A stretch of 32,788 nt of DNA from Rhodoferax sp. (GTDB lineage Bacteria; Pseudomonadota; Gammaproteobacteria; Burkholderiales; Burkholderiaceae_C). Below, piece after piece: positions 5,726 through 28,111 of this stretch. The notes beneath the pieces were generated by a model that searched no databases, was not told where the DNA came from, and saw only the letters and a list, made by a program, of their open reading frames with translations. A program made the position numbers and the translations under genes. Numbering within the stretch: position 1 is the stretch's first letter; every line of letters starts with the position of its first letter. The DNA is taken from NCBI GenBank assembly GCA_025351745.1, contig JANXVI010000278.1:1-32788 (forward strand), written 5' to 3'.

Positions 5726-5838
5726 TATTTCCGCAATGCCTACTCTCAACCGAGAAGCACGACCATTAGCAGGTCGGCACAAGTGCCTGCCCACCCGCGT
5801 CTGGTAAGCCCAGCCTGCCTGCCGCGCAAACAGCTGAA

Positions 5839-5899
5839 TGCTATCAAATATAGAGCTGCTTACACAATATCTGAGAGGGCTGGCGGCCATTTAAGCAAA
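5839..5899 (+). repeat. Intergenic repeat copy 1 (gctatcaaatatagagctgc...agggctggcggccatttaa)
   Basis: Shares the order gctatcaaa-N-tatag...gggctagcggcca-(T-rich) with the minus-strand copy near 28112-28174 and with a partial copy near 31351-31405. Confidence 0.5.
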
Positions 5900-5902
5900 T
5901 AC

Positions 5903-8230
5903 TCATGGCATCGACCTAGCCACCCGGAAGCCGACGTCGCAATCACGGCTACTGGGTGTTCCCTTGCCGCGGCTGGCTGAGCGCAGGTCTGGCGCGTCGT
6001 TGAACCATGAGCCGCCGCGGCGAACTCTGTGTTTTTGCTCTCCACCCACTTCCCAGGCACTTGCATCTGTTGGCGCGGCGTTGTAATTGTCGTGATACCA
6101 GTCTTGCACCCAATCCCAGACATTGCCGTGCATGTCAAATAGCCCGAACGCGTTGGCAGGAAATTGGCCCACAGGGGCGGTGAATTCCCAGCGGTCACGC
6201 CCTTGCGTTTGCGGGCCGCAGCAGGGTGCTTTGCCGTAATTGGCATATTCATGGCTGGCTGGACCTGCCCAAGAGTAGGCTGTTTGCGTGCCCGCGCGCG
6301 TCGAGTATTCGCGTTCGGACTCGCTCAAGAGTCGGTATGTTTTGCCACTGCTTTGGCTGACCCATAGGGCGTACGCCTGGGCGTCGTTCCACGTCACACA
6401 GACGACCGGATGGTCCTCTCCCTGGGTGAAGCCCACGTTGCGCCAGTTAAAGCTGGCATTTTTTTTCCAGGTGCCGGCCTCCCACCCATAACAGCCATCA
6501 CCTTGTTCGGCTTCGGTCTTGTAGTTCTTGGCGCGCACAAAGACGGCAAATTCAGCTTTGGTCACTGGGTAACGTCCGGCTGCAAAGCCGCGCACGGAAA
6601 TGGCGTGAACCGGTTTGGCATCATCACCAGCATCGTTGCCACCCATCTGGAAGCTGCCGGCCGGCACAATGACCATCTCCGGGCATTCTTTGCAGTCTTT
6701 AAACACCTTGCCGGGATGGGTTTCTACGCTGTCGTGCTTGGGCGGGACGGGAATGGGAACGGGAATGGAACTGGCGGTCGCAGACGCCGGAGCACTGCCA
6801 CTGGCAGTGGATTTGGAAGCGGTGTCTTGCTCAGCAATGTTTCTAAGCTCGATTCGGGCCAAGGCCACATATTTGCCTTTGGGGTACTGCTTGACGTAGG
6901 CTTCGTAGTAGGTGCGCGTCCCTTTGCTCTTGACCTCGTTCCAAAACGGAGTTTCAGTATCTTCTCGCACCACGCTTTCCGCCGCGGGCGCGCTGACTGT
7001 AGTGCTGCCGCGTGTCGCTTGCTCCGACGTGGCAACTGGCGCAGGGGTCGCGACTGGAGGCGGCGAGGATTTTGGAGCCACGGGGTTGAAGAAGAAGTCG
7101 CCCCGCAAGCTACCCTCTACCCAGGGTTCCTGCTTGCCTTGGGTTTGGCCAACAACCTGGTTGGTGACCCTTTTGAGCATGAGTTCTATCGGGAGGCCCG
7201 GTGTATCCATCTGTGCCAGTAACGATTCGGTGTAGACACCGTTTTTCCCCGCTCCGTCCGAAGCGACGCTGCCGGGTTTTGTGGCGTAGTGAATCAACGT
7301 TCCAGTCGCTGCCTCTGCCTTGGCCAATCCCCGCGTGCCACTGCGAAAACTGCGGGCGTAGGGGTTATCGCGGCAGGCATCTAACAGCACCAGGCTGACG
7401 CGGGCTTTGCCTTCTTCCATGTTATCCAGCAACGAACCCATATTCAGACTTTGCAAGGGCACGTCCTCTTCGCTGCTGATGACCGAGTCGACCGCCGGGA
7501 AGTAGTTTTGCCCTTTGAACTGAATGCCATGGCCCGCGTAAAAGAACAAGGCCTCTCCACCCGGTGTGATCGCGCTTCGAAATTCACGATAAATTGATCC
7601 AATCTCTTGAACCTTGACGTTCTCACGCAACAACACCACAAAACCGAGTTTGCGAAGTTTGGCGGCGATGGCTCGGGCGTCGTTGACAGGGTTAGTAAGT
7701 GGCCCGCTTTTGTAAGCACTATTGCCAATGACCAAGGCGACACGCTTGCCGTTGGAAGTCGATGACACTGGTGCGGGCAGGTTGGGTGCGTCGGAGCTCA
7801 GTCCGGCTGACCTGGCGGAAGGGCCCGCGGCGGAACGGACTGCAGGTGTGCCTGCGCCAGCCACAAAGTCTCGGGCATTCAAAATGAGTTCACGGTCTGC
7901 GCCAAAGCAGGGCAAGGCGGTGCTCAGCCCCTGGAGTTGCAGTTTGCCTCCCATCACCACCTTGTATCCGCCCGGCTTGTCGTAAGTGTGTGTGTCTTGC
8001 AGTTGCGCTTGCTTTGCGGGGAAACGCAGCATTTTGGATTCGCCGTCTCCATAGTCCAACGCAAGGCCGCATTCGCTGCTGCCTTCAGGGCGCTGGATGC
8101 TGATCTGAAAGACCTTGCCCACGGCGACTTCGGATGTCGGCGATTTGAGCACATAGCCGGGTGTTCCTTGCGCCAGCGCAACAAGGTTAATCATGCCTGT
8201 AAGCATGGCGACGAATGCCAGTGTTTTCAT
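5903..8230 (-). CDS. Secreted caspase-like (peptidase C14) protein with C-terminal FGE-sulfatase/SUMF1 (C-type-lectin fold) domain
   Basis: Signal peptide; GKRVALVIGNSAYKSGPLTNPVNDARAIAAKL, FFYAGHGIQ, VLLDACRDNPYARSF (His/Cys dyad); then CKECPEMVIVPAGSFQMGG...VCVTWNDAQAYALWVSQSSGKTYRLLSESEREYSTRAG...GNVWDWVQDWYHDNY...RRGGSWFNDAPDLRSASR...VGFRVAR. Confidence 0.93.
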   Translation of the reverse strand: MKTLAFVAMLTGMINLVALAQGTPGYVLKSPTSEVAVGKVFQISIQRPEGSSECGLALDYGDGESKMLRFPAKQAQLQDTHTYDKPGGYKVVMGGKLQLQGLSTALPCFGADRELILNARDFVAGAGTPAVRSAAGPSARSAGLSSDAPNLPAPVSSTSNGKRVALVIGNSAYKSGPLTNPVNDARAIAAKLRKLGFVVLLRENVKVQEIGSIYREFRSAITPGGEALFFYAGHGIQFKGQNYFPAVDSVISSEEDVPLQSLNMGSLLDNMEEGKARVSLVLLDACRDNPYARSFRSGTRGLAKAEAATGTLIHYATKPGSVASDGAGKNGVYTESLLAQMDTPGLPIELMLKRVTNQVVGQTQGKQEPWVEGSLRGDFFFNPVAPKSSPPPVATPAPVATSEQATRGSTTVSAPAAESVVREDTETPFWNEVKSKGTRTYYEAYVKQYPKGKYVALARIELRNIAEQDTASKSTASGSAPASATASSIPVPIPVPPKHDSVETHPGKVFKDCKECPEMVIVPAGSFQMGGNDAGDDAKPVHAISVRGFAAGRYPVTKAEFAVFVRAKNYKTEAEQGDGCYGWEAGTWKKNASFNWRNVGFTQGEDHPVVCVTWNDAQAYALWVSQSSGKTYRLLSESEREYSTRAGTQTAYSWAGPASHEYANYGKAPCCGPQTQGRDRWEFTAPVGQFPANAFGLFDMHGNVWDWVQDWYHDNYNAAPTDASAWEVGGEQKHRVRRGGSWFNDAPDLRSASRGKGTPSSRDCDVGFRVARSMP

Positions 8231-8397
8231 GCAACTTTCAGTGTCGGTTTGGTGACAATTTTGCAGTGGTTGAAGTTTACCAACGGCATTGTAAAAGCCA
8301 AGTATCTTGCACTTTTTTTTGCGTCAGTGGTATTGTTCGCGCTTCGCGTGAAAAATTTCTCGAACTTGGCATGACCGAGTTTTTAGGGGGACAGACG

Positions 8398-10494
8398 ATG
8401 GAAGGCATCACGGCGCAAGCACTTTCTCAGGTGCAAGTCTTGCGTGCGCTATGTGCGGAATACGCCCATGGCGCGCGCCGCGATGCCTTTTTGGCCCGGC
8501 TGGATTCTGACACCAGTGCATTGTTTGAAGGCCAGATCCGCCTCACACTTGTTCTGTTGGACCCGTCGGTTGCAAACAGTTACCTTAATCTTTTTTGCCA
8601 TGGCGATAGCGATATTTCGGGTGACACAGCCGGCGCGTTGACCATTTTTGGTCCCGAAATCTTGGTTGAAAACCCCGGTCGAACGAGTGCGTCAACCGTC
8701 CATCGACGGCAGCTTTCAGCCGAGTGTCAAGGGCAGGGCATTCGCGCACTCAATTTGGTAACCCATCCCGCGCACGTCTTTGGCTCGCCGGTGCTGCTGG
8801 GGCATCTGATGTATTCCACCGACCTGGTGGTGGTTTGCGGTGAAGCAGCGATGGACGACGCACCCCTGCGTGAAGGGCTTAAGTACCTGGCAGAGGTTTG
8901 TGACCACTTGCTGTATTGGCCAAGCCAATCGAACAATGAATCGCCCGATGGCAGTCTCGAGGCCTTGTTTCGACATGGGCATGCGATGCAGGGACAGTAC
9001 TCCGCCGATCGTTTTTTCAAGGAGGCGTGGGAGCCCTTAAACATTGCACAGCGCCAACAAATGCTGACATCAGCAACGATGGCGCGGCTTGGTCAGACTG
9101 CGGATTTGCTGCTGAAGGACATCCAAACGGAAGTGGGGGCTTTGAAGTTTCGCAATAGCGAGTTGACCCGTTTGCGCAAGGGTGAAGACGCGGGTGGGGG
9201 AGATCTCAAGGAGCAAACTGAAGCGATCAAGGCAATGCTGGATCTATGGTCCACGGCCCGCAAAGACGAAATTAACCGTGGGAATGAGGACGGCGTTTTG
9301 CCGTTTGACTCACGACTTTTGGCCAACAAGCTGGGCATTGGCGACCTGATGCACCGGCAGGATGAGTCTGCGGCGGAAATCAAGTACCCCATTCTGAAAG
9401 CCAAAATATTCCAGTCAGCCGTAAGCCATCGCTATACCCTGATCCCCGATTCAACGGCGATCGATGGCATCCGCTCCAGAATGGTCAACGCGCTGGATGT
9501 GCAGGTGCGCAAAGACGTCGAATTGTTGAATCAGCAGACTGGTGAACTGCTGGACCGAATGCGACGCAGCATCGAACTGTTTCCTGCGTTCGGTGACGCC
9601 ATCAAGAGCGTTCGCCTGCCGGTGTTGCAACGATCTCATTTTGATCGGGCGCTGGCGGGGATCACGCTGGAATCGGAAATTGAAGATAACTACATGCACG
9701 AAGGTATTTTCAAACGGTTGGCTGCTGGGCGCATGTTTGCCAGCATGGCATTTTCTTTCGTGACGATGGCGGCCGGCGTTTTCGTATTGTTTGGTGACCC
9801 GTCAATTAAACGTGGACTGATGAAGTTCAGTGGCGTGATCGTGATTGTGATGGTGCTCTACTTCATTTTTTCTTTGTTGATCAAGGCCGAGGAAGAGCGG
9901 AAAGTCCTTGAAGAGAAGTTGGAGCGTATCCGGGAGCAAGTGCACCAGGCGTTGGTTAGACCGCTGGGCAAAGTCGAGCAGACCATTGTCAAGACCTATT
10001 TGTCTTTTGTGGACGAGGTGAAGCAAGCGTTGACAGCATCATTGGAGACCACGGTGCGCCGCAATAGCCTGTCGCGGGCCCGTGTTGCCGAGTTTCGCAA
10101 GACTGAGGACGACCACGTCAAGTCGTTTCTGCAGCGTCGCCAACAGGCAGGCTCTGCGTTGGCCCAAAAGATTCCGCAATTTATCGCCGGTCTGGAAAGG
10201 ATGCGGCAAAGCGGTGAGCGTGCGCCTGCTCCATCCGTTGCGAGCACTGGCGTTGTTTTGCGTCCGGCGCCAGGCGCACCGACTGTACTGCCTAAGCTCA
10301 CCAGTCCTACTGCAGCCATTGCTGCTGGCGCTAGAGATGCATCGGAGGCGCCATTCCCGTCCCCAGTGAGCGAACCTGCGCGCCCATCCGCTATGGAGAG
10401 ATTTGCCAGCCTGGCAAAGGCCAGGCAACAAAAACCGGGCATGGATTTGGGCAAGGAGCCATCCCGACCCGAAGACTCTGGAGGTAAAGCATGA
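8398..10494 (+). CDS. Predicted membrane protein with two TM helices flanked by long coiled coils; dynamin-like layout, no recognisable P-loop
   Basis: The ORF track starts at 8215, but the ATG at 8398 has a good Shine-Dalgarno (ttaggggGacagacgATG) and avoids overlapping the divergent gene. TM pair ASMAFSFVTMAAGVFVLFG...FSGVIVIVMVLYFIFSLLI, flanked by charged helical segments. Confidence 0.75.
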   Translation: MEGITAQALSQVQVLRALCAEYAHGARRDAFLARLDSDTSALFEGQIRLTLVLLDPSVANSYLNLFCHGDSDISGDTAGALTIFGPEILVENPGRTSASTVHRRQLSAECQGQGIRALNLVTHPAHVFGSPVLLGHLMYSTDLVVVCGEAAMDDAPLREGLKYLAEVCDHLLYWPSQSNNESPDGSLEALFRHGHAMQGQYSADRFFKEAWEPLNIAQRQQMLTSATMARLGQTADLLLKDIQTEVGALKFRNSELTRLRKGEDAGGGDLKEQTEAIKAMLDLWSTARKDEINRGNEDGVLPFDSRLLANKLGIGDLMHRQDESAAEIKYPILKAKIFQSAVSHRYTLIPDSTAIDGIRSRMVNALDVQVRKDVELLNQQTGELLDRMRRSIELFPAFGDAIKSVRLPVLQRSHFDRALAGITLESEIEDNYMHEGIFKRLAAGRMFASMAFSFVTMAAGVFVLFGDPSIKRGLMKFSGVIVIVMVLYFIFSLLIKAEEERKVLEEKLERIREQVHQALVRPLGKVEQTIVKTYLSFVDEVKQALTASLETTVRRNSLSRARVAEFRKTEDDHVKSFLQRRQQAGSALAQKIPQFIAGLERMRQSGERAPAPSVASTGVVLRPAPGAPTVLPKLTSPTAAIAAGARDASEAPFPSPVSEPARPSAMERFASLAKARQQKPGMDLGKEPSRPEDSGGKA

Positions 10495-12008
10495 TTTCGC
10501 CCGATAGCAAGGCGCCTTCAGTCGGTAGTGTTCTGGCCATTCATATGGGGGACCTGTATGTGCGCTCGTCGTTTCTCGACCCGACAAACGCACCGACCAC
10601 CATTGAAGACGAGAGTGAATCCCAGCGATTTTTGACGCCCAGCATAGCCACGTTGGACGGGGGGGGGGGCTTGCTCGGCTATCCGGCGTTGCTGGCGTCC
10701 GCTAATGTACGGGCCGGTACAACGCGTTGGCGCTATCGCCGCAGCGGACTTACCAATCACAGCGCGGCATTGTCAGATTCCAAAGGCCGTGGTCTAACGT
10801 CTGGGGCATTTGCGGCTTTGGTCACCCGGCGTCTATGCACGGATGCCGTGGGTTGGACTGCAAGCCAACCCGAGCCGGTGCTCATCGTACCGAGCGAAAT
10901 GAGTGGCTACGAGAGGCTGGCCTTGGCAACGCTGGCCAGCGAATCTGCCGAGCGACCCGTGGGCACTTTAGACGAAGACCAGTCATTGATGTTTGGTCTT
11001 GGTATAGCGCCCAGTGAGGCACCAGTGTTGGTCATCAGCGTAGATGACGATTCGGCCAGACTTCGTCTGCTAAAGCGCGTGGATGGCGAGATGAGAGCGA
11101 TGTTCGTACAGGTGTTGCCAGCGCAAGGTTTACTGGCCTTGCGTCAGGCTTGGCTGGATCGATGGAACCGTGAGGTCAACCAGCTAATACCGGGTAGTGA
11201 GGCGTTTGGGGATGGTGAATCATTTGAATTTGAGATGGTTTGGCAAGACATTTGGCAGTGTCTGGAAATCGATCCTCGACTGAAACCGCGAATGCCGACG
11301 TGGTCTGCAGTGCGCAATTCGACCCTTGTGCCGCTAACGATCTCGCGCCAGTCGCTGCAAGCCGATCTGGACACGTTTTGGCTCAGCATTGGGCAAGCTG
11401 CAGTAGGTTTGTTGACGCAAGCCACATGCGCTCCTTCCAAACTTTCGTCGTTGGTTGTGGTCGCGCCGACCGCAATCGGGCGTGTCTTATGTCCTGTAAT
11501 AGCTGAAAACTTGGGTTTTCCCCAATCGCTTTGCCGCACGGTTACTGCCAATATCTATGCGCAAGGGGGTGCGCGCCTGTTCGCTGCGGCCAAGGAAAAG
11601 GCATTCAATCAGATAACCAAGGCTCCGCATCGATTGGGAGCGTTTGGAATGGCAAAAGACGAGGCTGGACTGACGCTTAAGCCATTGATCGAGGCTGGAG
11701 CCCCATTGCCCGCGAGCGCTAATTTTTCTATCATGGCGAATCGGGATGTTCAAAAGCGTTTGTCGATTCGGCTCGCACGGGAAGTTGCCGGTGGGCCCCC
11801 TGAAGTCTGTCAACAAACAGAATTTGGCCCGTTGCACGGCCAAGGAATGCAAAAAATAAAAATAAACGTAGCCTGGACGCAGGACGGTCGGGTGGCAATG
11901 ACAGCGTTGGACGCGGAGTCGGGAGATCCTTTACCAGTTCTGGATTCTCATGAAATGGCGGCCTCTGGGCCAAAGTTGAGCGGCTTGCATATTCGCCAGC
12001 TTGACTAG
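10491..12008 (+). CDS. Divergent Hsp70/actin-fold protein (probable pseudo-ATPase)
   Basis: ATGA overlap with the upstream gene. LAIHMGDLYVRSSFLD, PVLIVPSEMSGYERLALATLASESAERPVGTLDEDQSLMFGLG, VLVISVDDDSARLRLL and LSSLVVVAPTAIGRVLCPVIAENLG fall where the Hsp70 nucleotide-binding motifs are expected, in degenerate form. Confidence 0.6.
   Translation: MISPDSKAPSVGSVLAIHMGDLYVRSSFLDPTNAPTTIEDESESQRFLTPSIATLDGGGGLLGYPALLASANVRAGTTRWRYRRSGLTNHSAALSDSKGRGLTSGAFAALVTRRLCTDAVGWTASQPEPVLIVPSEMSGYERLALATLASESAERPVGTLDEDQSLMFGLGIAPSEAPVLVISVDDDSARLRLLKRVDGEMRAMFVQVLPAQGLLALRQAWLDRWNREVNQLIPGSEAFGDGESFEFEMVWQDIWQCLEIDPRLKPRMPTWSAVRNSTLVPLTISRQSLQADLDTFWLSIGQAAVGLLTQATCAPSKLSSLVVVAPTAIGRVLCPVIAENLGFPQSLCRTVTANIYAQGGARLFAAAKEKAFNQITKAPHRLGAFGMAKDEAGLTLKPLIEAGAPLPASANFSIMANRDVQKRLSIRLAREVAGGPPEVCQQTEFGPLHGQGMQKIKINVAWTQDGRVAMTALDAESGDPLPVLDSHEMAASGPKLSGLHIRQLD
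10659..10669 (+). repeat. 11-nt poly-G homopolymer inside the coding sequence (LDGGGGLLG)
   Basis: Direct read: ttggac-GGGGGGGGGGG-cttgctcgg. Confidence 0.9.
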
Positions 12009-12034
12009 TGCCCAGTTGGGTGTCATTGGGCACT
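12007..12034 (+). other. Perfect 8-bp stem-loop directly after the Hsp70-like ORF
   Basis: AGTGCCCA - gttgggtgtcat - TGGGCACT. Confidence 0.6.
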
Positions 12035-12044
12035 GCGTGGTGCG

Positions 12045-12074
12045 GGTCGTTGTAGGAATACGACCTTCTTTTTT
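12045..12074 (+). terminator. Rho-independent terminator (or attenuator) between the Hsp70-like gene and the coiled-coil genes
   Basis: GGTCGT - tgtaggaat - ACGACC followed by TTCTTTTTT. Confidence 0.7.
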
Positions 12075-12116
12075 AGAACGAGAGAGTTACAGGCATTCAA
12101 TACAAGGAGAAAACCT

Positions 12117-12956
12117 ATGGCACAGATGGGCGTCCAGTTGACTGAACTTGCTACGCAAATGAAGGCAACGATCCATGATCAATTTGTACCCACGCTTGAA
12201 GAGCTCAAACACAAGTTTGACAGCGAAATGCACAAGATGTCGAGTTGGGCGGATGACATTCGAAATGCCATTGACGAAGTGCGTGACACTCTTCCCGATC
12301 ATGTGCACAAAATGATTGAAGCCCTTCACCACCATCAGGAGGAGGTCAAAAAGGTGGTTCAGGCGTGTCTATCCCATGGCCAGGAATACCAGGACGAAGT
12401 TCACGAGGCCGAGGTGTCAATCCATTCCTTGCAAGAAACGACCCATGGCCATGGCGTGGAATTGCACACAGATCTTGGGGGCAACCAGGAGATCGGCCAT
12501 CACATGCAGGAAGAGGTCAGCCACCATCTGACGGACTGGATGGGTGCTATCGACCATACGCTGGGACAGGCGGACGAGCATATTGGCCAGGTCGAGCAAA
12601 GCTTTATGCACCTCGGTAGTGAAATGGCACATGGTGTTGCGGACGTAGTCGGTCAGATAGGCCATGCCTCGCATTTCGTCACAGATCAGGTATCTAAGTC
12701 GCTTGAGGATTTCGGCAGCCACCTGGGCCAGATGTCTGGCGAGCGCCATGATCATCTTGTCAGTCATGTCGGTGAGTCGGTCGGTGGATCGGTTGGAGGC
12801 GTCATCTCTGTGGTCGGTGAATTTGTACAGGCAGGCGAGGAAATGGGTGACATGTTTCATGGCAGCCTGGGTGACGTGCTCGGATCAGTGGAGCAGGTTA
12901 CCAATGTGATCCACGAAATCAGGCCTGTCATCGACTTGGCTGAAGCTCTGCTCTAA
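12117..12956 (+). CDS. His-rich coiled-coil protein 1 of 4
   Basis: 279 aa, no signal peptide, long amphipathic helices, about 30 His by hand count; strong SD (caaggagaaaacctATG); C-terminal Gly/Val-rich segment VGESVGGSVGGVISVVGEFV. Confidence 0.85.
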   Translation: MAQMGVQLTELATQMKATIHDQFVPTLEELKHKFDSEMHKMSSWADDIRNAIDEVRDTLPDHVHKMIEALHHHQEEVKKVVQACLSHGQEYQDEVHEAEVSIHSLQETTHGHGVELHTDLGGNQEIGHHMQEEVSHHLTDWMGAIDHTLGQADEHIGQVEQSFMHLGSEMAHGVADVVGQIGHASHFVTDQVSKSLEDFGSHLGQMSGERHDHLVSHVGESVGGSVGGVISVVGEFVQAGEEMGDMFHGSLGDVLGSVEQVTNVIHEIRPVIDLAEALL

Positions 12957-12981
12957 ACCATCGCAGCAAAGAGGACTCATT

Positions 12982-13926
12982 ATGGCTACGACCAAAGACT
13001 TGCAAGAAATTCAGGCGCAAATAGAAGAACGCATCGGCGTTCTGCGTGAAAGTTTCGGTGTACTGGAGGGCGACTTTGCCAAACTGCGGGAAGCCGATCA
13101 TGCTTTTGACATCGAACTTGACCAAGACTGCGATAACCACCTGCGAAACCCGGCAAAAGAAGGCTCTGAGCGCCTGACTCATCTGAATCACGATGCAACG
13201 CTGCAGTTCGAGACGCACCTGCAGACGGATATTGGTCATCTCGGTGAGGAGTTTCACGAAGCCAAGCTGGCCTTGGCCTCTCACCTGGAACACCATCGAC
13301 ATGGCTACCATGCATTGCATCACGGCATGACTGAATTCACGCACGAAATTGGCCAAGTTGACAGTGATATGGGGCATGCGAAAGATGAGTTCATCGGCCA
13401 AGTCAGTCATATGGCCAGTGAATTGAGTCAGCTCGGTGAAAAGGTATTCAGCACCGGCAGTGATCTTTCGCACAGTGTTCAAGACACCCAAACCCAGATC
13501 ATTGACAAGGCTGCCGCAGGATTTAAGGACCTTCTCGGCGGCCACATAGACACGCTGCTGCCTGGGCACTTTGAACACACCTTGTCGAACCTGACCCACG
13601 CGGTGAGTGATCTGGGTGAACAATGCAACACGATAGGAACATCGTTTCAAAGCGAACTGGAGACGCTTCTCCATCACGTGGGTGATTTTGCGACGCAAGA
13701 AGTTCACAACAAGGTGCAGGAAAAGTTTCAAAAGCTCATCCATGAAGCGGTAGCGCACCTGGCCGAGCAAATTACCGAGTCCATCGCAACCACTGCGGCC
13801 GGCGCTGCGATAACGGGGGCCATGTCTCCCATACTGCCTGAGCTCGCCGTGCTAAAGGCCGCCACGGAGCTTATCAAGGATGCAATCGCTGCATTCAAGG
13901 CCCTGGAAGACCTGTTCGGCTTATAG
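12982..13926 (+). CDS. His-rich coiled-coil protein 2 of 4
   Basis: 314 aa; same composition and helical pattern as its neighbours; SD agaggactcattATG; Ala/Ile-rich C-terminus SIATTAAGAAITGAMSPILPELAVLKAATELIKDAIAAF. Confidence 0.85.
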   Translation: MATTKDLQEIQAQIEERIGVLRESFGVLEGDFAKLREADHAFDIELDQDCDNHLRNPAKEGSERLTHLNHDATLQFETHLQTDIGHLGEEFHEAKLALASHLEHHRHGYHALHHGMTEFTHEIGQVDSDMGHAKDEFIGQVSHMASELSQLGEKVFSTGSDLSHSVQDTQTQIIDKAAAGFKDLLGGHIDTLLPGHFEHTLSNLTHAVSDLGEQCNTIGTSFQSELETLLHHVGDFATQEVHNKVQEKFQKLIHEAVAHLAEQITESIATTAAGAAITGAMSPILPELAVLKAATELIKDAIAAFKALEDLFGL

Positions 13927-13969
13927 CCTCCCATTCTTCAATCGACCCCATCACTTGCAGAGGCCCATC

Positions 13970-14938: not shown

Positions 14939-14973
14939 AACGCCACCCAAAAAAATTGTCAAGGAGTTAAAAA

Positions 14974-15888: not shown

Positions 15889-15920
15889 AGTGGTTACGGT
15901 TGATTCAATAAGGAAATGCA

Positions 15921-17600: not shown

Positions 17601-17602
17601 AT

Positions 17603-17983
17603 ATGGTATTCCGCCATCGAATCTTGGCCCAATGCTGGCCTATGATGTTTGCGGTTTTGGGATTGGTCGCGTCGACGCTGGCATGGGGTGCAGATCCTGA
17701 GGCCGAGCCTGCGTTGAAAGTACCGCAAATCAACCGAGACCCGAAACCCATGTTCACTCCGGCGGAATATCCGATGCCGTCCGATTCGGCGCCCGGCGCC
17801 TACCAGATGCGCTGCTGGCAGCGCGGGCAGTTGCTGTTTTCAGAAAACAACTTAAGCGACCCTGCCGTCGCTGCGCTCCCTGGGCGGGTCGTCACCTTTA
17901 ACGAAAAGACGGGCAATGCCGTCTACTTGGTGGAAGTGGCAGAGTCTCTTTGCCTGATTAAGCGGAATAAGGCAGCACGCTGA
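17603..17983 (+). CDS. Small secreted protein of unknown function
   Basis: 126 aa; signal peptide MFAVLGLVASTLAWGA; starts 3 nt after the upstream stop codon. Confidence 0.65.
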   Translation: MVFRHRILAQCWPMMFAVLGLVASTLAWGADPEAEPALKVPQINRDPKPMFTPAEYPMPSDSAPGAYQMRCWQRGQLLFSENNLSDPAVAALPGRVVTFNEKTGNAVYLVEVAESLCLIKRNKAAR

Positions 17984-17998
17984 GAAGTTACAACGTTC

Positions 17999-19954
17999 AT
18001 GACCAACGAACCCAATGCCCCCAGCTTTTTTGAGGAAACCGAACAACGTGAAGGCCATGATGCGCGCGCACTTTCTTCCGGCTACCGCCTCAACGAATTT
18101 GAAATCCAGAATGTCATAGGAAGCGGCAGTTTTGCAATCGTATACAAGGCATTCGACCATTCCTTGAACCAATTCCGTGCCATCAAGGAATTTTTGCCCC
18201 GTGGCCTGGCTGGACGTTTTGACAACAACACGATTACCATTCTTTCGAAGAAGGATGAATCGGCATACACCACTGGACTTACGGGGTTTATCGATGAAGC
18301 CCGCTTGCTGGCCGGTATCAACCATCCGTCAGTGGTTCGGGTCTACCGATGCATTGAGGCAAACCGGACGGCCTACATGGTCATGGACTTGTGTGAAGGC
18401 GAAACGCTTTCGCAGCGGATTGATCGAGATCCTGTGTTTGATCCACAGTGGATGCAGGCGTTTCTCTGTTCGCTGCTCGGGGGAGTCGAAGCCCTGCATG
18501 CGGCGCGCATTTTGCATCGCGATATCAAACCATCGAATATTTTTTTGGCAAACGGATCGCGTCCCATATTGATCGACTTTGGTTCGGCCCGTCAGCTCGC
18601 AGAGAATGATGTTCAGAGGCCCATGACGGCGATTGTGACCTACAACTATTCTGCGCCAGAACAGTGGGATAGCACGGGTCAGTTTGCGCAGGGACCCTAT
18701 TCCGACATCTATTCGATTGGGGCGACCTGTTATGAGATGGTTGCGCAGCGCAAACCAGGTTCCAGCAATACACGACTGCTGCGAGACTTGCTCATCCCCG
18801 CGGTCGATTTGGGAAAATCCAAATACCCGGCCAAATTTCTCGCGAGCATTGACAAGGCCTTGAAAATACCGGTCAAGGACCGCTACCAGACAGCCCGCGA
18901 GTGGCTCGCCGATCTACAAGCAAATGGCACAAACGGTTCAACGCCTTCGAGCTGGAAATCATGGGCCGTAATCGGTATAGTTGCTGTAGCAGTTTGCGCA
19001 AGTGGAGCCGCCATCTTTTTTGCTGTGCGCGGCAATGCGGCGAAAGAGGTGGCGGCGCACGCCAAAGCTGGCATGACGGAGTCCATAGCTCCCGGCACAC
19101 TTATTCGCGACTGTCCTACGTGCCCTGAGATGGTGGTGGTGGACAAGGGAAGTTTCCAGCAAGGCGGTAACAGCAACGCAGCCGACCGTGATGAGCTGCC
19201 GCGCCATGCAGTCAAAATTGCGACCGCATTTGCAGTAAGCCGATTTGAAGTCACGCTTTTCCAATTCACTGAATTTGTCAATGCATCGGGGTACAACTTT
19301 GGTGGCGATGCATCTTGCAACAAGAAGAAAAGTGCTGTCGAAGACAAAACGTGGAAGTCACCCGGGTTTCCACAGCGGGAAGACGAGCCCGTTGTCTGCA
19401 CCAGTTGGTTCGATGCAAACGCATATGCGCAATGGATGAGCAAGGTCACAGGTAAGCGCTATCGTCTGTTGTCGGAGTCAGAATGGGAATATATGGCCCG
19501 TGCAGGCAGCGATGCACTGACCCCATGGGGTACCGAGGAAAGCAAGTCGTGTGAACATGCCAATCTGGCTGATGAGGCATTTGTAAAGCGTACAGAGGCC
19601 AAGGTAGCCTACAAATGCAACGACCAAAGTGCATTTACGGCGGCCGGCAGCACTTCGTTGCGTCAGAATCGTTTTGGCATTCACGATGCAATAGGCAATG
19701 TCGCTGAATGGGTAGCCGACTGTCTGACTGATGACTATGCCGGTGCTCCAATCGATGGTTCAGCGGTTAACAGCGCAACGTGCCAAAAGCGGGTTTACCG
19801 GGGAGGTGCATTTAACTACAACGTAGCGGATGTACGTTTTGCCCGACGCGAATCGATTGCTCCGGCGGAACGCAGGCCGTTTATCGGTATTCGCCTGGGG
19901 CGCGAGCTGGATGCGCCCGCCACGGCTGTTGTAGAAACTTCGGGGAAAAAATGA
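17999..19954 (+). CDS. Ser/Thr protein kinase - TM - FGE-sulfatase/SUMF1 domain fusion
   Basis: G-loop IGSGSFAIVYKA, AIKEFLP, HRDIKPSNI, IDFGSAR, SAPEQW; TM AVIGIVAVAVCASGAAIFFAV; then CPTCPEMVVVDKGSFQQGG...RLLSESEWEYMARAGSD...GNVAEWVADCL...RVYRGGAFNY...IGIRLGREL. Confidence 0.93.
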   Translation: MTNEPNAPSFFEETEQREGHDARALSSGYRLNEFEIQNVIGSGSFAIVYKAFDHSLNQFRAIKEFLPRGLAGRFDNNTITILSKKDESAYTTGLTGFIDEARLLAGINHPSVVRVYRCIEANRTAYMVMDLCEGETLSQRIDRDPVFDPQWMQAFLCSLLGGVEALHAARILHRDIKPSNIFLANGSRPILIDFGSARQLAENDVQRPMTAIVTYNYSAPEQWDSTGQFAQGPYSDIYSIGATCYEMVAQRKPGSSNTRLLRDLLIPAVDLGKSKYPAKFLASIDKALKIPVKDRYQTAREWLADLQANGTNGSTPSSWKSWAVIGIVAVAVCASGAAIFFAVRGNAAKEVAAHAKAGMTESIAPGTLIRDCPTCPEMVVVDKGSFQQGGNSNAADRDELPRHAVKIATAFAVSRFEVTLFQFTEFVNASGYNFGGDASCNKKKSAVEDKTWKSPGFPQREDEPVVCTSWFDANAYAQWMSKVTGKRYRLLSESEWEYMARAGSDALTPWGTEESKSCEHANLADEAFVKRTEAKVAYKCNDQSAFTAAGSTSLRQNRFGIHDAIGNVAEWVADCLTDDYAGAPIDGSAVNSATCQKRVYRGGAFNYNVADVRFARRESIAPAERRPFIGIRLGRELDAPATAVVETSGKK

Positions 19955-21126
19955 AATCGACCGTATTCGCAATTGTCTTTGCCATTGGCACTTCGGCTGT
20001 GTATGCGAACAATGCAGAGCCTGTAGAAATCCCTGACGCTAAACAACAAAAGGCTACAGGCGGCAAGTCAAAGGCAGAATCAGAGATCCGAAATGCGCTG
20101 GCAAAGGCTGCTTCGGCACGCGTCGAAAACGTAGCCACCGTAGCTGCAGGTGGTAGCCATACCGTCGCCGTGCGAAGGGACGGCGTTGCATTGGCTTGGG
20201 GTGGCAATGAGGCGGGACAGTTGGGCGATACCAAGACCAGCAACAGTGACCGCCCGGTGCTGGTTGTCGCAGGGCCGTACACGGCGGTGGCCGGCGGGGG
20301 CAGTTTTTCTGTGGCTATCAAGTCCGACGGTTCAGTTTGGGTGTGGGGCCAGCAAGTAGCGGGGACAGACGCAACCGGTAAGCGCACCGAGGCACGGCGG
20401 ATGTCCATCGACGGCAATGCCGTAGCGGTCGCTGCCGGGGGGCAGCATGCCCTTGCATTGACCGCAGACGGGGCCCTGTGGACTTGGGGTGGTAATCAAT
20501 TTGGGCAAGTTGGCGATGGCACAACGATGCCTCGGCCTGCGCCTATGCTCATTGGTCGGGGCTTTGCCAAAATTGCGGCAGGCGGGTCGCACAGCCTTGC
20601 GATCAATCGCGAGGGCACCCTTTTCGCGTGGGGTAACAATGAATCTGGTCAATTGGGTATAGGCGCGCGTGAAGCCGTCGTGCCGACGGAAGTAGGGCGT
20701 GACTTTTTAGAGGTTGCGGCTGGTCGGAACCATACTTTGGCAATCAAGCGCGGCGGGAGCTTGTGGGCGTGGGGCGACAACCAAAGTGGGCAATTGGGCA
20801 ACCGTTCTTCAGCGAGCCAACCTACTCCTCTTAAAATTGGAGAGGATAGCGACTGGACGTCAGTCGCAACGGGCAGCGGCCACTCGCTTGCCATTCGTGC
20901 AAAGAGCAGTTTGTTCGCATGGGGCACGAACGAGGAAGGCCAACTCGGTACAGGCACGGGTGTTAGCGTCAATGTACCTACCAAAGTAGAGGGCGACTTC
21001 GTGCAAATTGCGGCGGGCGCGTACCACTCCGTAGGGGTAAAGCCTGACGGTAGTGTTTGGGTGTGGGGCGCCTCGGATCAGGGGCAAGCGGGCAAAGGCG
21101 CATCGCCAAAGCCCAGGTCCATGTGA
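19951..21126 (+). CDS. Secreted RCC1-repeat beta-propeller protein (seven repeats visible)
   Basis: ATGA overlap with the kinase gene; signal peptide MKSTVFAIVFAIGTSAVYA; repeated [VI]AxGxxHxxAxxxdGxlxxWGxNxxGQLG. Confidence 0.92.
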   Translation: MKSTVFAIVFAIGTSAVYANNAEPVEIPDAKQQKATGGKSKAESEIRNALAKAASARVENVATVAAGGSHTVAVRRDGVALAWGGNEAGQLGDTKTSNSDRPVLVVAGPYTAVAGGGSFSVAIKSDGSVWVWGQQVAGTDATGKRTEARRMSIDGNAVAVAAGGQHALALTADGALWTWGGNQFGQVGDGTTMPRPAPMLIGRGFAKIAAGGSHSLAINREGTLFAWGNNESGQLGIGAREAVVPTEVGRDFLEVAAGRNHTLAIKRGGSLWAWGDNQSGQLGNRSSASQPTPLKIGEDSDWTSVATGSGHSLAIRAKSSLFAWGTNEEGQLGTGTGVSVNVPTKVEGDFVQIAAGAYHSVGVKPDGSVWVWGASDQGQAGKGASPKPRSM

Positions 21127-21127
21127 G

Positions 21128-24100
21128 TCAACGAGCGGTTACGCCGTTAACACCCACGAGTGCTATCGGAAAGTCAGCTACACCAAGCGGAGTGATGCTG
21201 ACAGGGGATTGTTGTCCCTTCGTCAATTCTTTGACCCGCTCGGCAACGTAGAAGTCAAGCCCCTTGTGGGTGACGATTCCAGTCTTTCGAAAATCTGCTT
21301 TACCTGCCAAGCCTTCGACCAGTGCTTTGGTAAAAGCTCCATTCCCCCAGTTCGGCGATTCCTGGGAGAGTTGTCGTCCCGTGGAGGCTGCAAAAACCAC
21401 AACACCGTTCTCGGCGGATGCGAGGTCATTGACGATTGCATTGACGTCTGCCACGCCCCGCGTTTTGGCCGTACCGAGTGCATTGCCAGAATGGCAGGTG
21501 TCGATGAAAAAGAGGGCCTTGCCAGCAATATTGTTCAACGTGAGTTTGATGTCATTGTGCGCGACGCCGGTGCGCAGTAGTTGCTCCGGATTGATGTCAT
21601 GCGGCAAAAAATAGTAATTGCCAGCGTTGTCGTTCATACCATGGCCAGCGAGAAAGAGTATTCCAACGTCGCGTGCTGTGACCTCACGCTTGAGCCATTC
21701 CAAGCCTTCCAGTACGCCATCCTTGGTGGCCTTTGCGTCTGTCAAGAGGCGAACTTCAACGTCACGGTACAGTGTTCCCTTCTGTTGCAAAAGTACCTGA
21801 CTAAAGTCGCTAGCATCCTTCGCGGCAAAATCAAGGTTGTAGGTGGGATTGCGGTATTTGGACATTCCCACAGCCAGAACATAGAGCTTGGGATTGAACA
21901 TCTTGTCACCTGAGGAGGCGCTTGGAGGCGTGCTGACTGCGGGCTTGCTCCCACCCCATTTCACCAACAAGGAGGTCGGCAAAGATACCCCATTGCGATT
22001 CTCGGCAAAGACTTGAACATCCGCATTCTCATTGGGCAATCGGACGGCAATGTCACGGTAGTCGACGCCCGACGCCGAGGGGCCTGCTTTCTGGGCCAAT
22101 GCAACACCAACATCTGCCTGCAACAAACCATTGACTCTTACCCGGACCGATTGGACGGGTGCGTCCATTGGAGTGCGAACCGACACGCGCAGGGTGAGTT
22201 CATTCTTGGAAGTGACGAACCCGTCCTGGGGCGCAAGAATGTCCACAACAGGTGGCAGTGCCTGCGCTACCGACTGCGCCTGCACCATTCGCCCAGCGGC
22301 CAAATCAGACAGGCGCAGCGCTTCTGCAACGGTACCGGCTTCAATTACTCTGGCGACCACATCGGGTCGGTAAAATTGGGTTCTGAACCGGGATGCCGGG
22401 AAGAAGTCTGCAGATTGGTCTTTGCCGCGATTGAGGTGCCAACCTATCAGGTCTTCTGACCCCGCAGCGGCGGCGTAATAACCACTCGGAGTCCAGATGA
22501 CCCAGCGCCGACGGTCGGGGTGCGGGTACAGCGCCAGTTGCTCAGTGCCGTCGCTCGCGCGGTACCAGCGAATAGTTCCGTCGCTGAAACCTGCAATGAC
22601 CCACTGACCATTGCCTGAGACATTGACTTGCCAAGTGGTTCCTGGGGCCGTTGAGCGCCAGCGTTCGGTGCCGTCGGCCTTGATGTAGCGCACATAGAGA
22701 CTGGTACCTAGTACGACGCCTGCACTGCCAGATGCAAGTGCTGCACTCATTGAAACTTCGTTTTCCGCTAACACAAACGGGCGCCCATTGAGTCGAGGCT
22801 GCACACTGTCGATCCATTCACGCACTTCCAGGGTTTTGCTACTTACCGCTGGAGCAGTCCACAGCGTTTGCGGTGCGACCCATTCTGTGCGCACCAGGTC
22901 AAAGCCGCTTTCGCTTGCAGTGCCTCGGCTGCTGCGCCCAGAAAACGCAATGGCGCTGCCGTCGCGGGACGTACGGAACCCGGTCCGCCCGCCTCGAAAA
23001 TCAATCAGTCCACTGCTAACGGCAAGATCTGAAGCAGATGCCTGGGTCCCCGCGGTCGGTGTCAGCCAGCCCCAAGCGGGGTCCGCTGATGCATAAACGA
23101 TGCGACCGTCATGAAGGACTTGAATGCCAACAATGCTGTTACCAGTGAGGCTTACATCCGTTGCTTTGCCTTGACCTTGTGCTGCCCAGCGCCTAAGCCC
23201 ATGTCTTCCGTCTGGAAGTTTCCAGGTGCCGGCCGCCAAAAGCTCGGCGCCGTTGGGGCTCCAGGCCAACGCGTTCAGGCTTCCATTTGCGATGCCAGCG
23301 ATGTCGGGCGAGAACGCCTGAACTAATGTGTCCGATCGCAGCACGGCAATAGCCGGGGAGTCGGCAAAACCGACGGCCAACGCGGCGCCATCCGGTGACC
23401 ACGCGAGGCCAAAAGCCTGGCTACCCGATTGGGTCGGCGCACTGCGGTTCAACCTAAGTGTGCCTTGTGCCCAGCTGTAGACACGAACCAAACCGTCTGC
23501 ACTGGTTGACGCCAGTCGAGCGCCATCGGGGCTAAATTTTGCACTGGTGATGGAACCGTCGTAACGGGAATCGCCACCCAGTTCCCGGCTGTTTCGCCAG
23601 TCGGAATCACTGCCGAATAGACGCAATCCATTTTTCCCCCATAGCCCCACGAGCAGACTTTTCCCGTTCGGCGAGAAGTTGAGTTGTGTGATGACGTCTG
23701 GCAAGCCAGTGATGCGCTGGACCATCGCGCCGCTTTTCGCGTCGAAAAGATAGACATCATTGTCCGCCGACCAACCACCTACTGCAATAATCGATCCAGT
23801 GGGCGCCATGGCGGCCGCGAAGAGCTTGCCGTCATTTCCAGCGCCAATGGGAGGTCGCAAAACCCTGAGGAGCTGACCATTCGCAAGATCCCAGACGCGA
23901 GCGGTTCGGTCGTCCGCCGCTGTGACCGCATAACGGCCCGTGCGGTCAATGTCGAGCGCCCGAATCGGTGCGGTATGCGAGCCTGTGTTGACCTGCAAGA
24001 GTGGGGACTCCCTGCTTTGCGCCAGACTGGCCCCCGCGAGCAAAGACGAGCAAACATGGGCCAAGGCCAGGGTCAAGACCCACGGGCCCCAATGTCGTGT

Positions 24101-24139
24101 CAGACGGCGCAAAACTCCAGGCCGCTCAACTGTGGTCAT
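21128..24139 (-). CDS. Secreted WD40-like beta-propeller + C-terminal caspase-like (C14) peptidase
   Basis: The ORF track starts at 24178; the internal ATG at 24139 gives MTTVERPGVLRRLTRHWGPWVLTLALAHVCSSLLAGASLA and avoids overlapping the upstream gene. WD-like HTAPIRALDIDRTGRYAVTAADDRTARVWDLANGQLLRVL; caspase dyad LFLAGHGMND and FFIDTCHSGN. Confidence 0.92.
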   Translation of the reverse strand: MTTVERPGVLRRLTRHWGPWVLTLALAHVCSSLLAGASLAQSRESPLLQVNTGSHTAPIRALDIDRTGRYAVTAADDRTARVWDLANGQLLRVLRPPIGAGNDGKLFAAAMAPTGSIIAVGGWSADNDVYLFDAKSGAMVQRITGLPDVITQLNFSPNGKSLLVGLWGKNGLRLFGSDSDWRNSRELGGDSRYDGSITSAKFSPDGARLASTSADGLVRVYSWAQGTLRLNRSAPTQSGSQAFGLAWSPDGAALAVGFADSPAIAVLRSDTLVQAFSPDIAGIANGSLNALAWSPNGAELLAAGTWKLPDGRHGLRRWAAQGQGKATDVSLTGNSIVGIQVLHDGRIVYASADPAWGWLTPTAGTQASASDLAVSSGLIDFRGGRTGFRTSRDGSAIAFSGRSSRGTASESGFDLVRTEWVAPQTLWTAPAVSSKTLEVREWIDSVQPRLNGRPFVLAENEVSMSAALASGSAGVVLGTSLYVRYIKADGTERWRSTAPGTTWQVNVSGNGQWVIAGFSDGTIRWYRASDGTEQLALYPHPDRRRWVIWTPSGYYAAAAGSEDLIGWHLNRGKDQSADFFPASRFRTQFYRPDVVARVIEAGTVAEALRLSDLAAGRMVQAQSVAQALPPVVDILAPQDGFVTSKNELTLRVSVRTPMDAPVQSVRVRVNGLLQADVGVALAQKAGPSASGVDYRDIAVRLPNENADVQVFAENRNGVSLPTSLLVKWGGSKPAVSTPPSASSGDKMFNPKLYVLAVGMSKYRNPTYNLDFAAKDASDFSQVLLQQKGTLYRDVEVRLLTDAKATKDGVLEGLEWLKREVTARDVGILFLAGHGMNDNAGNYYFLPHDINPEQLLRTGVAHNDIKLTLNNIAGKALFFIDTCHSGNALGTAKTRGVADVNAIVNDLASAENGVVVFAASTGRQLSQESPNWGNGAFTKALVEGLAGKADFRKTGIVTHKGLDFYVAERVKELTKGQQSPVSITPLGVADFPIALVGVNGVTAR

Positions 24140-24159
24140 TGCTGAATCGGCAACGCCAT

Positions 24160-25452
24160 TCAGGCCTTTGGTGCACATGGGCCCGGCTTGAATTCGATGC
24201 GACGGTCCAGCGCGTCGAACGGATCGCCCCGACCGGTTGCAACCATTGCTTCGCTGGAGCCATAGCCCTTCGTGCTGATGAGGTCTGCGAGGTCGTTGCG
24301 CTCTGCAATCAACCGCTGTTTGACATATTCTGCGCGTTGCAAGGAGAGTCGCTCGTTCAAAGCCTCTGATCCTCCCCGCCCGGTATGGCCCCCGACTTCA
24401 AAGCAAGTCCCCGACGCCTTGGCAAATTTGGATGACTCGCTCGCCAATTCCTTGAGCCAACGGTCATACGAATTTTCATCCTTGGCGAAACCAGCTGCTC
24501 CACTTTGGAATCCAAATTTCACAGCCAATCGCTTCGCTGTCATACCTTGGGAGGCCAGTTTTGCGAATTCATGCATCGCAGCATCGCGTCGCCCTAGCTT
24601 GAGATTGGACAGATAGATGCCTGTGTGGGCGCGCGGTTGGTCGCCAGCAGGGTTGCGCAAGAGCGCGGTAAACAATGCCAGAGATTCCTTATATTTTCGA
24701 CCGTTGTAAGCCTTGGTGGCCTCGTCGATACCGGCAGCAACCGAAACCTTGTCCAAGTACGCCGGGTTAATAGGGTCACCCGCACTGGTGCCTTGGCAAG
24801 TACGAATATAGCCTTCGACAATTTTGTCGTTTATCCATAGTGGTGCGTCCCGAAAATAGGGCAGGGGAGTGGGATCGATACCCGCGGTTTGCGATCTGGC
24901 GAAACCCTTGCTTACAATTTTTCCGGTTTTAAGGTCGGCGAGCGCAAAGCAAATTCGATACGCATCACGCTCTCCCGTGCCCTTGCCTTGCAGGTTTATG
25001 GGGGTAAAAGTTCCGATGAACACCAAGGGCGCGGCGGCTAAGTTTGCGGCGTTGAGCGGCTTGACCTGGTAGCGTGGGAAATCGCTGGATACGATCCCGA
25101 CCACTTGCTTTTCCAGGGCCGCCGTTGCTACGGACTGCATGCCGGTTGTTCCGTCCACCAGTGGATCAATCACCATATCGAAAGTCTGCCCATCGGGCAA
25201 CTTCGCCTTGGTGAAGAGGTCTTTTGCGGCAAGCTTCACTGCATCCTCGTAGGGGAGAGCAACAATGACCGCAGGCGGTGCGGCGGGCTGCTGTGCGACG
25301 GTAACAATCGCTGGCGCTGGAGCGACTTCTTTTTTGGCCATGTCTTGATTTGCGCAACCCAGTAACACTATCGGAATTGCAATCAAGAGAAGATACCTTG
25401 AAGGAGAGGCGGCCTCATAGTTTGGGGCTGCCAACTGAAGTGAGGGTTTCAT
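24160..25452 (-). CDS. OmpA-like domain lipoprotein
   Basis: Start MKPSLQLAAPNY (ATG at 25452); lipobox VLLGCANQ; C-terminal CFEVGGHTGRGGSEALNERLSLQRAEYVKQRLI...DRRIEFKPG, OmpA/MotB-like peptidoglycan-binding pattern. Confidence 0.8.
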   Translation of the reverse strand: MKPSLQLAAPNYEAASPSRYLLLIAIPIVLLGCANQDMAKKEVAPAPAIVTVAQQPAAPPAVIVALPYEDAVKLAAKDLFTKAKLPDGQTFDMVIDPLVDGTTGMQSVATAALEKQVVGIVSSDFPRYQVKPLNAANLAAAPLVFIGTFTPINLQGKGTGERDAYRICFALADLKTGKIVSKGFARSQTAGIDPTPLPYFRDAPLWINDKIVEGYIRTCQGTSAGDPINPAYLDKVSVAAGIDEATKAYNGRKYKESLALFTALLRNPAGDQPRAHTGIYLSNLKLGRRDAAMHEFAKLASQGMTAKRLAVKFGFQSGAAGFAKDENSYDRWLKELASESSKFAKASGTCFEVGGHTGRGGSEALNERLSLQRAEYVKQRLIAERNDLADLISTKGYGSSEAMVATGRGDPFDALDRRIEFKPGPCAPKA

Positions 25453-25655
25453 AGTAGTGCCCTTTGAGATATGGAAACAGTACACCAACCGCATCCAAAT
25501 GGATTTCATCCGACTCGGTACATTTCATGATAGCCAGTTCCACCAAGGCGTCAACTGACACCCAAGGGACCGGGCGGCGCGAAGGCGCACGCGAATGTCA
25601 ATCTCCAGAATGAGATACTGCAGCCCATCCGAAAAAATGACTGGGAGAGGAAACC

Positions 25656-28049: not shown

Positions 28050-28111
28050 GTCAATCCTCGGTAGGCAGTGATTGTGCAGCAGCTTGCCAGGGCCGTCTTT
28101 GAACCGAGTTC

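What the first reader, a model, noticed from the sequence alone, without database searches (positions are those of the whole stretch)
5903..25452. Possible undescribed envelope-associated system: two caspases, an STPK, FGE domains, pseudo-Hsp70, two-TM coiled-coil protein and four coiled-coil proteins
Thirteen consecutive genes combine regulated-protease domains (two distinct C14 caspases), a transmembrane Ser/Thr kinase, two FGE/SUMF1 domains, two beta-propellers (RCC1, WD40-like), a DUF4384-like lipoprotein and an OmpA-like lipoprotein with cytosolic-looking proteins (two-TM coiled-coil, degenerate Hsp70, four His-rich coiled coils). ATGA overlaps (10491-10494, 19951-19954) and short gaps suggest co-regulation. 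Caspase, STPK and FGE modules are established parts of bacterial conflict and signalling systems; the link to a coiled-coil quartet plus pseudo-Hsp70 is not an arrangement I recognise. Hypothesis: a kinase/caspase-controlled envelope stress or cell-death device whose effector or scaffold is the coiled-coil quartet.
Basis: partly seen in the sequence, partly recalled or inferred. Interest (0 to 1): 0.82.

Follow-up and report, generated by a model that had tools for sequence, protein, structure and literature searches.

The report
Conserved ten-gene envelope-to-cytosol operon
Two bacteria from different families carry the same ten genes in the same order, linking a membrane-spanning signalling kinase and envelope proteins to a degenerate chaperone and four histidine-rich rod-like proteins; no named system matches it, and its function is still unknown.

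Summary
The genes are there as described, but the unit is different from the one proposed. Ten + strand genes (8398-21126) form one block: a two-TM protein, a degenerate Hsp70, four His-rich helical proteins (cc1-cc4), a DUF4384 lipoprotein, a small exported protein, a transmembrane STPK-FGE and a periplasmic RCC1 propeller. All ten occur, same order and strand, in a Rhodocyclaceae MAG (L193): 57-66% identity for the envelope four, 26-46% for the cytosolic six. Its neighbours differ, and neither caspase nor the OmpA lipoprotein is there, so the caspases are not part of the conserved unit. They belong to a widespread DUF4384/small/OmpA/orthocaspase association (OmpA in 47, caspase in 36 of 63 DUF4384 loci). 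Both caspases have export signals and intact His-Cys dyads, so they should not meet the cytosolic proteins. The degenerate Hsp70 is truly Hsp70-related (420 collinear columns) but lacks its ATP motifs and lid. The cc proteins are long helices of period 3.6 (not heptad 3.5), strongly acidic, with almost as many His as excess negative charges. The two-TM and cc proteins match no known family. Best guess: kinase-controlled, pH-tunable inner-membrane assembly. The mechanism is inferred; the conserved operon is well supported.

The parts
8398..10494 (+). Two-TM protein: about 450 aa N-terminal cytosolic part, TM hairpin, helical and Pro/Ala-rich tail; no known family
   Evidence: ORF; start supported by the L193 ortholog (46% over 705 aa); no Pfam/NCBIfam/PADLOC/PHROGs family
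9733..9894 (+). TM hairpin of the two-TM protein, its best conserved part (42 of 47 residues identical around it, against 47% overall)
   Evidence: hydropathy; alignment A4
10491..12008 (+). Degenerate Hsp70 (nucleotide-binding plus beta substrate-binding domain, no lid); ATGA overlap with the gene before
   Evidence: 42% to L193 ortholog; pair profile finds true Hsp70s first; 420 collinear columns; ATP motifs replaced in both orthologs
12117..12956 (+). cc1, His-rich acidic all-helical protein
   Evidence: 34% to L193 ortholog; 30 His, net charge -36, period 3.6
12982..13926 (+). cc2, His-rich acidic all-helical protein
   Evidence: 36% to L193 ortholog; 27 His, net -32, period 3.74 in both orthologs
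13970..14938 (+). cc3, His-rich acidic all-helical protein
   Evidence: 26% to L193 ortholog; 31 His, net -25, period 3.58 in both orthologs
14974..15888 (+). cc4, His-rich acidic all-helical protein
   Evidence: 27% to L193 ortholog; 30 His, net -37; AlphaFold2: two helices of 157 and 143 residues, mean pLDDT 64.7
15921..17600 (+). DUF4384 lipoprotein (lipobox LLGC; sub-threshold peptidoglycan-binding-like stretch)
   Evidence: Pfam DUF4384 4.1e-13, PG_binding_1 19.6 bits against a cut-off of 23; 65% to L193 ortholog; 172 relatives in genome contigs
17603..17983 (+). Small exported protein, 126 aa, 2 bases after the DUF4384 gene
   Evidence: 58% to L193 ortholog; pair profile finds it near DUF4384 in 44 of 80 loci
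17999..19954 (+). Transmembrane Ser/Thr kinase: cytosolic kinase, one TM (about 18956-19036), periplasmic FGE-like domain
   Evidence: Pkinase 1.5e-39, FGE 1.9e-50; kinase motifs intact in both orthologs; 66% to L193 ortholog
19951..21126 (+). Exported RCC1 beta-propeller; ATGA overlap with the kinase gene
   Evidence: RCC1 repeats; signal-like N-terminus in both orthologs; 57% to L193 ortholog
12009..12116 (+). 108-base gap before cc1 with stem-loops and a T run, possible partial terminator or mRNA processing site; the 113-base L193 gap also folds into a strong stem-loop, without the T run
   Evidence: folding; suggestive only
5903..8230 (-). Neighbour, not in the conserved unit: exported orthocaspase-FGE, His-Cys dyad intact
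   Evidence: C14 6.4e-35, FGE 1.8e-61; YAGHG/DACR; absent beside L193 operon
21128..24178 (-). Neighbour, not in the conserved unit: exported WD40-orthocaspase, His-Cys dyad intact
   Evidence: WD40 1e-22, C14 2.6e-14; LAGHG/DTCH; full-length relative in G105/L023, 32% over 985 aa, near DUF4384 and OmpA
24160..25509 (-). Neighbour: OmpA-like lipoprotein (alternative start at 25452)
   Evidence: OmpA 1.1e-7; absent beside L193 operon

Best explanation
A conserved ten-gene operon that couples the envelope to a cytosolic, membrane-facing assembly. SHOWN (computed): ten genes in the same order and strand in two bacterial families; an intact transmembrane kinase with an FGE-like outside domain; exported DUF4384, small and RCC1 proteins; a two-TM protein with a nearly invariant hairpin; an Hsp70 relative without ATP motifs or lid; four acidic, His-rich, almost wholly helical proteins. 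INFERRED: the RCC1, FGE and DUF4384 proteins report on the cell wall or outer membrane; the kinase then phosphorylates the cytosolic set; the degenerate Hsp70 serves as a fixed peptide-binding adaptor; the two-TM hairpin anchors the assembly in the inner membrane; the cc rods lie on the membrane or stack into a filament or coat. SPECULATIVE: because the His number nearly equals the excess negative charge, a fall in cytosolic pH (proton leak) would cancel the charge and trigger assembly, as part of membrane repair or sealing.
For: Ten-gene synteny with L193, neighbours different. Envelope proteins 57-66%, cytosolic proteins 26-46%. Kinase G-loop, Lys, HRDIKPSN, DFG and APE intact in both. TM hairpin 42/47 identical. 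Hsp70 homology with ATP motifs lost in both orthologs. cc proteins: helical prediction; period 3.58-3.74, matched ortholog by ortholog at 26-36% identity; 24-32 His against net charge -25 to -48, leaving -16 to +6 if all His are protonated. His faces away from the hydrophobic side. His sites are no better kept than average (0.30) although the content is kept, which fits a bulk charge property rather than fixed metal sites.
Against: No experiment. Only two occurrences found, both in metagenome-assembled genomes. Kinase substrates, physical contact between the parts, membrane binding and pH response are untested. The structure model of the two-TM protein failed (pLDDT 37) and that of cc4 is of modest confidence (64.7). 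Apolipoprotein and similar Pfam hits to the cc proteins are far below cut-offs, as any amphipathic helix would give.
Confidence: 0.3

Rival explanations
1. Kinase/caspase-controlled cell-death or envelope-stress device: the two caspases are activated and cleave the coiled-coil quartet or its partners.
For: Both caspases have intact His-Cys dyads and flank the operon; caspases lie near DUF4384 genes in 36 of 63 longer loci; STPK next to a caspase gene elsewhere in the same genome (L028).
Against: No caspase beside the conserved operon in L193; both caspases carry export signals by sequence, the cc proteins do not; caspase/DUF4384 loci otherwise lack cc, Hsp70-like and two-TM genes.
Confidence: 0.12
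2. Metal handling: the His-rich acidic rods bind and buffer Zn, Ni, Cu or Fe in the cytosol, with the envelope part sensing metal or metal damage.
For: 24-32 His per protein with many Asp/Glu; weak enrichment of H-H at i,i+7 (z 2.6) and D/E-H at i,i+4 (z 2.8) among about 42 tests.
Against: His sites are conserved no better than average residues; almost no Cys; no metal transporter or metal regulator gene among the 13 genes or in L193; the spacing signals are at the level expected from multiple testing.
Confidence: 0.15
3. Anti-phage or biological-conflict system of the chaperone/kinase type.
For: Kinase, caspase, FGE, propeller and Hsp70 domains all occur in conflict systems described by Kaur et al. 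2020 (PMC7159879).
Against: No MoxR-vWA pair, DO-GTPase, GAP1, nuclease or known effector here; PADLOC hits are to generic kinase and caspase domains and to unrelated coiled coils. EADs and VMAP were not searched for by a specific model.
Confidence: 0.13
4. Cytosolic scaffold or storage-granule coat (filament, lipid or polyhydroxyalkanoate granule surface), regulated by the kinase, rather than an envelope repair machine.
For: Straight amphipathic helices without export signals; weak resemblance to apolipoprotein and perilipin-like models.
Against: The two-TM hairpin protein and the envelope proteins co-conserved in one operon point to the inner membrane; no granule genes nearby; the resemblances are below cut-off.
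Confidence: 0.2

Closest known systems
DUF4384/OmpA/orthocaspase envelope gene groups (annotated but unnamed; for example Azospirillum plasmids NZ_CP029832.1 and NC_016587.1)
   Same: DUF4384 lipoprotein and OmpA protein close together, with a caspase-FGE protein in A. ramasamyi and an STPK in A. lipoferum
   Different: No two-TM protein, degenerate Hsp70, cc quartet or RCC1; they carry CHASE2-cyclase (A. ramasamyi) or PP2C, FHA and trypsin-like genes (A. lipoferum) instead
Orthocaspases with WD40, FGE or DUF4384 accessory domains (PMC8283722, PMC6426788)
   Same: The two flanking caspases have these published architectures (WD40 with C14, C14 with FGE) and the His-Cys dyad
   Different: They flank the conserved ten-gene unit and are absent beside it in L193
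GTPase-centric conflict systems with HSP70 (Kaur et al. 2020, PMC7159879)
   Same: An Hsp70-family protein in an operon with membrane and helical proteins
   Different: No GTPase or GAP1; the Hsp70 here lacks its ATP motifs; the envelope part is different
CoCoNuT type IV restriction systems (PMC11090510)
   Same: Coiled coils and a degenerate Hsp70-like unit (CnuD)
   Different: No McrB GTPase, McrC, HEPN or other nuclease here; the cc proteins are separate rods
Type VI secretion-linked STPK/PP2C/FHA/OmpA cassettes (L134, L135, L136-L137, L148)
   Same: Several of the best kinase-domain relatives sit there, some with OmpA and caspase genes
   Different: No T6SS, PP2C or FHA gene in the window; those kinases match only the kinase half here

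Membership tests
Hsp70 superfamily | Collinear nucleotide-binding plus beta substrate-binding domains | tested here: met
   420 columns, 33-483 on 22-488, E 2.7e-5, probability 74%; true Hsp70s are the top non-self profile hits; no Pfam or PDB profile match
Hsp70 superfamily | Phosphate 1, phosphate 2 and adenosine motifs for ATP | tested here: not met
   Replaced in both orthologs (IHxGxLxVRS, SxDDDxxRxRLL, VVAxxAxxR)
Hsp70 superfamily | C-terminal helical lid | tested here: not met
   Proteins end (505 and 490 aa) at the end of the aligned beta domain
Orthocaspase (C14), two flanking genes | p20 domain with His-Cys dyad | tested here: met
   C14 hits; YAGHG/DACR and LAGHG/DTCH
Ser/Thr kinase (Hanks type) | G-loop, Lys, HRDxKxxN, DFG, APE | tested here: met
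   Intact in both orthologs
Formylglycine-generating enzyme proper | Catalytic cysteine pair in the RGGSW...GFR region | tested here: not met
   No Cys pair there in either window FGE domain or in the L193 kinase; more likely a binding domain
Bacterial dynamin-like protein (two-TM protein) | GTPase domain with P-loop | tested here: not met
   No detectable relation to 18 dynamin-like proteins; no conserved P-loop between the two orthologs
GTPase-centric conflict system (Kaur et al. 2020) | DO-GTPase plus GAP1 | tested here: not met
   No GTPase-like family in the ten genes; GAP1 was judged only by the absence of a matching family
Type VI secretion phosphorylation pathway | T6SS genes with PP2C and FHA partners | tested here: not met
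   None in the window or beside the operon in L193
Heptad coiled coil (cc1-cc4) | Hydrophobic period 3.5 | tested here: not met
   Peaks 3.58-3.74; mean relative power 2.74 at 3.6 against 0.85 at 3.5
Apolipoprotein family (cc1-cc4) | Pfam match above the curated cut-off | tested here: not met
   At most 32.7 bits against a cut-off of 90
Membrane-binding or ESCRT-III/PspA-like coat | Assembly on membranes | not testable with these tools
   Needs purified protein or microscopy

The most novel reading that the evidence does not exclude
A new kind of bacterial membrane-repair or remodelling machine: four His-rich acidic rods that switch from soluble to assembled on the inner membrane when the cytosol acidifies, held by an ATP-independent Hsp70 relative and a hairpin membrane anchor, and gated by an envelope-sensing transmembrane kinase.
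Probability: 0.1. Interest if true: 0.88.

Novelty: categorically new. Interest (0 to 1): 0.66.

Why it matters
A ten-gene order kept between two families while the cytosolic members have diverged to 26-46% identity implies a selected machine, not a chance cluster. It contains at least five protein families with no known relatives (the two-TM protein and cc1-cc4), and a non-ATPase Hsp70 apparently kept for a structural role. It would give bacterial transmembrane STPK-FGE kinases, usually orphan sensors, a candidate cytosolic target set that can be tested directly.

Tried and rejected
Two-TM protein as a degenerate dynamin-like GTPase (my own guess from motif-like stretches): rejected, no relation to 18 bacterial dynamin-like proteins and no P-loop shared by the orthologs. 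A weak two-TM hit in G031 lies over a Pro-rich tail of an adenylate cyclase-like ORF: chance. Weak Hsp70-like hits in L090-L093 are antisense ORFs or carry no relative: chance, and a warning that single-protein E-values near 1e-4 mean little here. Searches for the two-TM, Hsp70-like or cc proteins found nothing in relatives, class (369, two-TM only), phylum (399) and order (300, Hsp70-like only), plasmids, phages (cc4 only), viral contigs, or a first pattern scan of genome contigs. The relative came only through the better conserved DUF4384 protein. AlphaFold2 of the two-TM protein from one sequence failed. Alpha-pore-forming toxins for the cc proteins: rejected as unsupported, no export signal, no hydrophobic tongue, only sub-threshold hits. 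Promoter and terminator scans were at the shuffle level.
Full report
WHAT IS THERE. Ten run on the + strand from 8398 to 21126: a two-TM protein, a degenerate Hsp70, four His-rich helical proteins (cc1-cc4), a DUF4384 lipoprotein, a 126-aa exported protein, a transmembrane Ser/Thr kinase with an FGE-like outside domain, and an exported RCC1 propeller. Two pairs overlap by ATGA (10491-10494, 19951-19954). The other three (caspase-FGE, WD40-caspase, OmpA lipoprotein) are on the - strand on either side. No RNA family or tRNA is present.

THE UNIT IS CONSERVED. Searches with the cytosolic proteins found nothing outside this genome. A search of 85,488 species genomes with an alignment of the better conserved DUF4384 protein gave 172 relatives, the best 80 kept. 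The best, L193 (PMIF01000186.1, a Rhodocyclaceae MAG from a fen), carries all ten + strand genes in the same order and strand: two-TM 46%, Hsp70-like 42%, cc1 34%, cc2 36%, cc3 26%, cc4 27%, DUF4384 65%, small 58%, STPK-FGE 66%, RCC1 57%. Each cc protein pairs with its own counterpart. Both ATGA overlaps and the 2-base gap after DUF4384 are kept. The neighbours are unrelated: an autotransporter-like ORF upstream (my reading of its sequence) and a GH44/Calx-beta protein downstream. Third-position GC is 72-83% in L193 and 55-67% in the window, so the two copies do not look like a recent exchange. None of the other 79 loci has the two-TM, Hsp70-like or cc genes.

WHERE THE CASPASES BELONG. Of the 63 DUF4384 loci of at least 12 kb, 47 have an OmpA gene, 36 a caspase and 32 the small protein. 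The window's genome has six C14 matches in 5.1 Mb, so by chance about one caspase would be expected over all these loci (my estimate). The caspases and OmpA lipoprotein of the window therefore belong to a widespread DUF4384/OmpA/orthocaspase association, also seen annotated in Azospirillum, in G105/L023 with a full-length WD40-caspase relative (32% over 985 aa) and, for OmpA, caspase and STPK, in a congener (L149). Orthocaspases with WD40, FGE and DUF4384 domains are published (PMC8283722, PMC6426788). Both window caspases have the His-Cys dyad and export signals by sequence. They are not beside the operon in L193.

THE DEGENERATE HSP70. Pfam and the PDB do not recognise it. The profile of the two orthologs ranks true Hsp70s first among 21,083 ORFs (8.7e-7 and 5e-6) and aligns over 420 columns with Hsp70 nucleotide-binding and beta domains (E 2.7e-5, probability 74%). 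The ATP motifs are replaced in both orthologs and there is no lid. An Hsp70-derived adaptor without ATP cycling is inferred.

THE TWO-TM PROTEIN. It matches no family. Its hairpin is 42 of 47 identical while the whole is 47%. I suspected a degenerate dynamin-like GTPase; the comparison did not support it.

THE FOUR HELICAL PROTEINS. The cc4 model, from four sequences, is almost wholly helical (mean pLDDT 64.7). Hydrophobicity repeats at 3.58-3.74 residues, the same value within 0.02 for each ortholog pair at 26-36% identity, with little power at the heptad value 3.5. They are strongly acidic (net -25 to -48) and carry 24-32 His, so full protonation would leave -16 to +6. His lies away from the hydrophobic side. 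His sites are kept no better than the average residue (0.30), but the content is kept. This fits a bulk charge property better than fixed metal sites. Whether the four are paralogs is suggested but not proven.

THE ENVELOPE PART. The kinase motifs are intact in both orthologs; the FGE domains lack the catalytic cysteine pair and are more likely binding domains. The closest kinase-domain relatives elsewhere include several in T6SS-linked cassettes and match only the kinase half.

HOW IT MAY WORK. Envelope state read by RCC1, FGE and DUF4384 proteins; signal across the inner membrane by the kinase; cytosolic targets being the two-TM protein, the Hsp70 relative and the cc rods, which assemble at the inner membrane, perhaps when the cytosol acidifies. 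The conserved unit is shown; every step of the mechanism is inferred (confidence 0.3).

LOCATION AND LIMITS. In congener G003 the right flank (FAH, PALP, TRAP genes) is syntenic at about 77-83% and the island is absent. The window's genome is a fragmented draft with 6.85% contamination and holds a second partial copy of the flank (C215, 87%), so strains may be mixed. L193 is also a MAG. Only two occurrences are known; the search required exact short motifs. No paper found describes the set, but most subscription papers are not in the library.

Noticed in passing
25607-28049 and L192 (G000:C215:1-2890): The same genome bin holds a second partial copy of the right flank (FAH gene, 87% identical) beside a sirtuin-like gene, as in congener G003; the bin may mix two related strains.
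   Followed up: partly
about 28107-28185: A short intergenic element (roughly 50-70 bp) matches many places in genomes of the same genus at 73-97% identity; possibly a dispersed repeat of the genus.
   Followed up: partly
12009-12116: Stem-loops and a T run between the Hsp70-like gene and cc1; L193 also has a strong stem-loop in the same gap. Possible partial terminator or processing site that sets different expression of regulators and rods.
   Followed up: partly
L028 (G000:C65) 7515-12261: Elsewhere in the same genome an STPK gene lies directly before a caspase gene; G048 (L144) has the same pair.
   Followed up: no
L151 (G002:C3) 5572-16671: A congener has an array of seven FGE-domain ORFs in tandem with two caspase ORFs.
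   Followed up: no
L238 2404-5850: An RCC1 protein of about 1148 aa sits between two caspase ORFs near a DUF4384 gene in a Pseudomonadales MAG.
   Followed up: no
31414-32442: Fil_haemagg_2 (hemagglutinin repeat) fragment near the window's right end.
   Followed up: no
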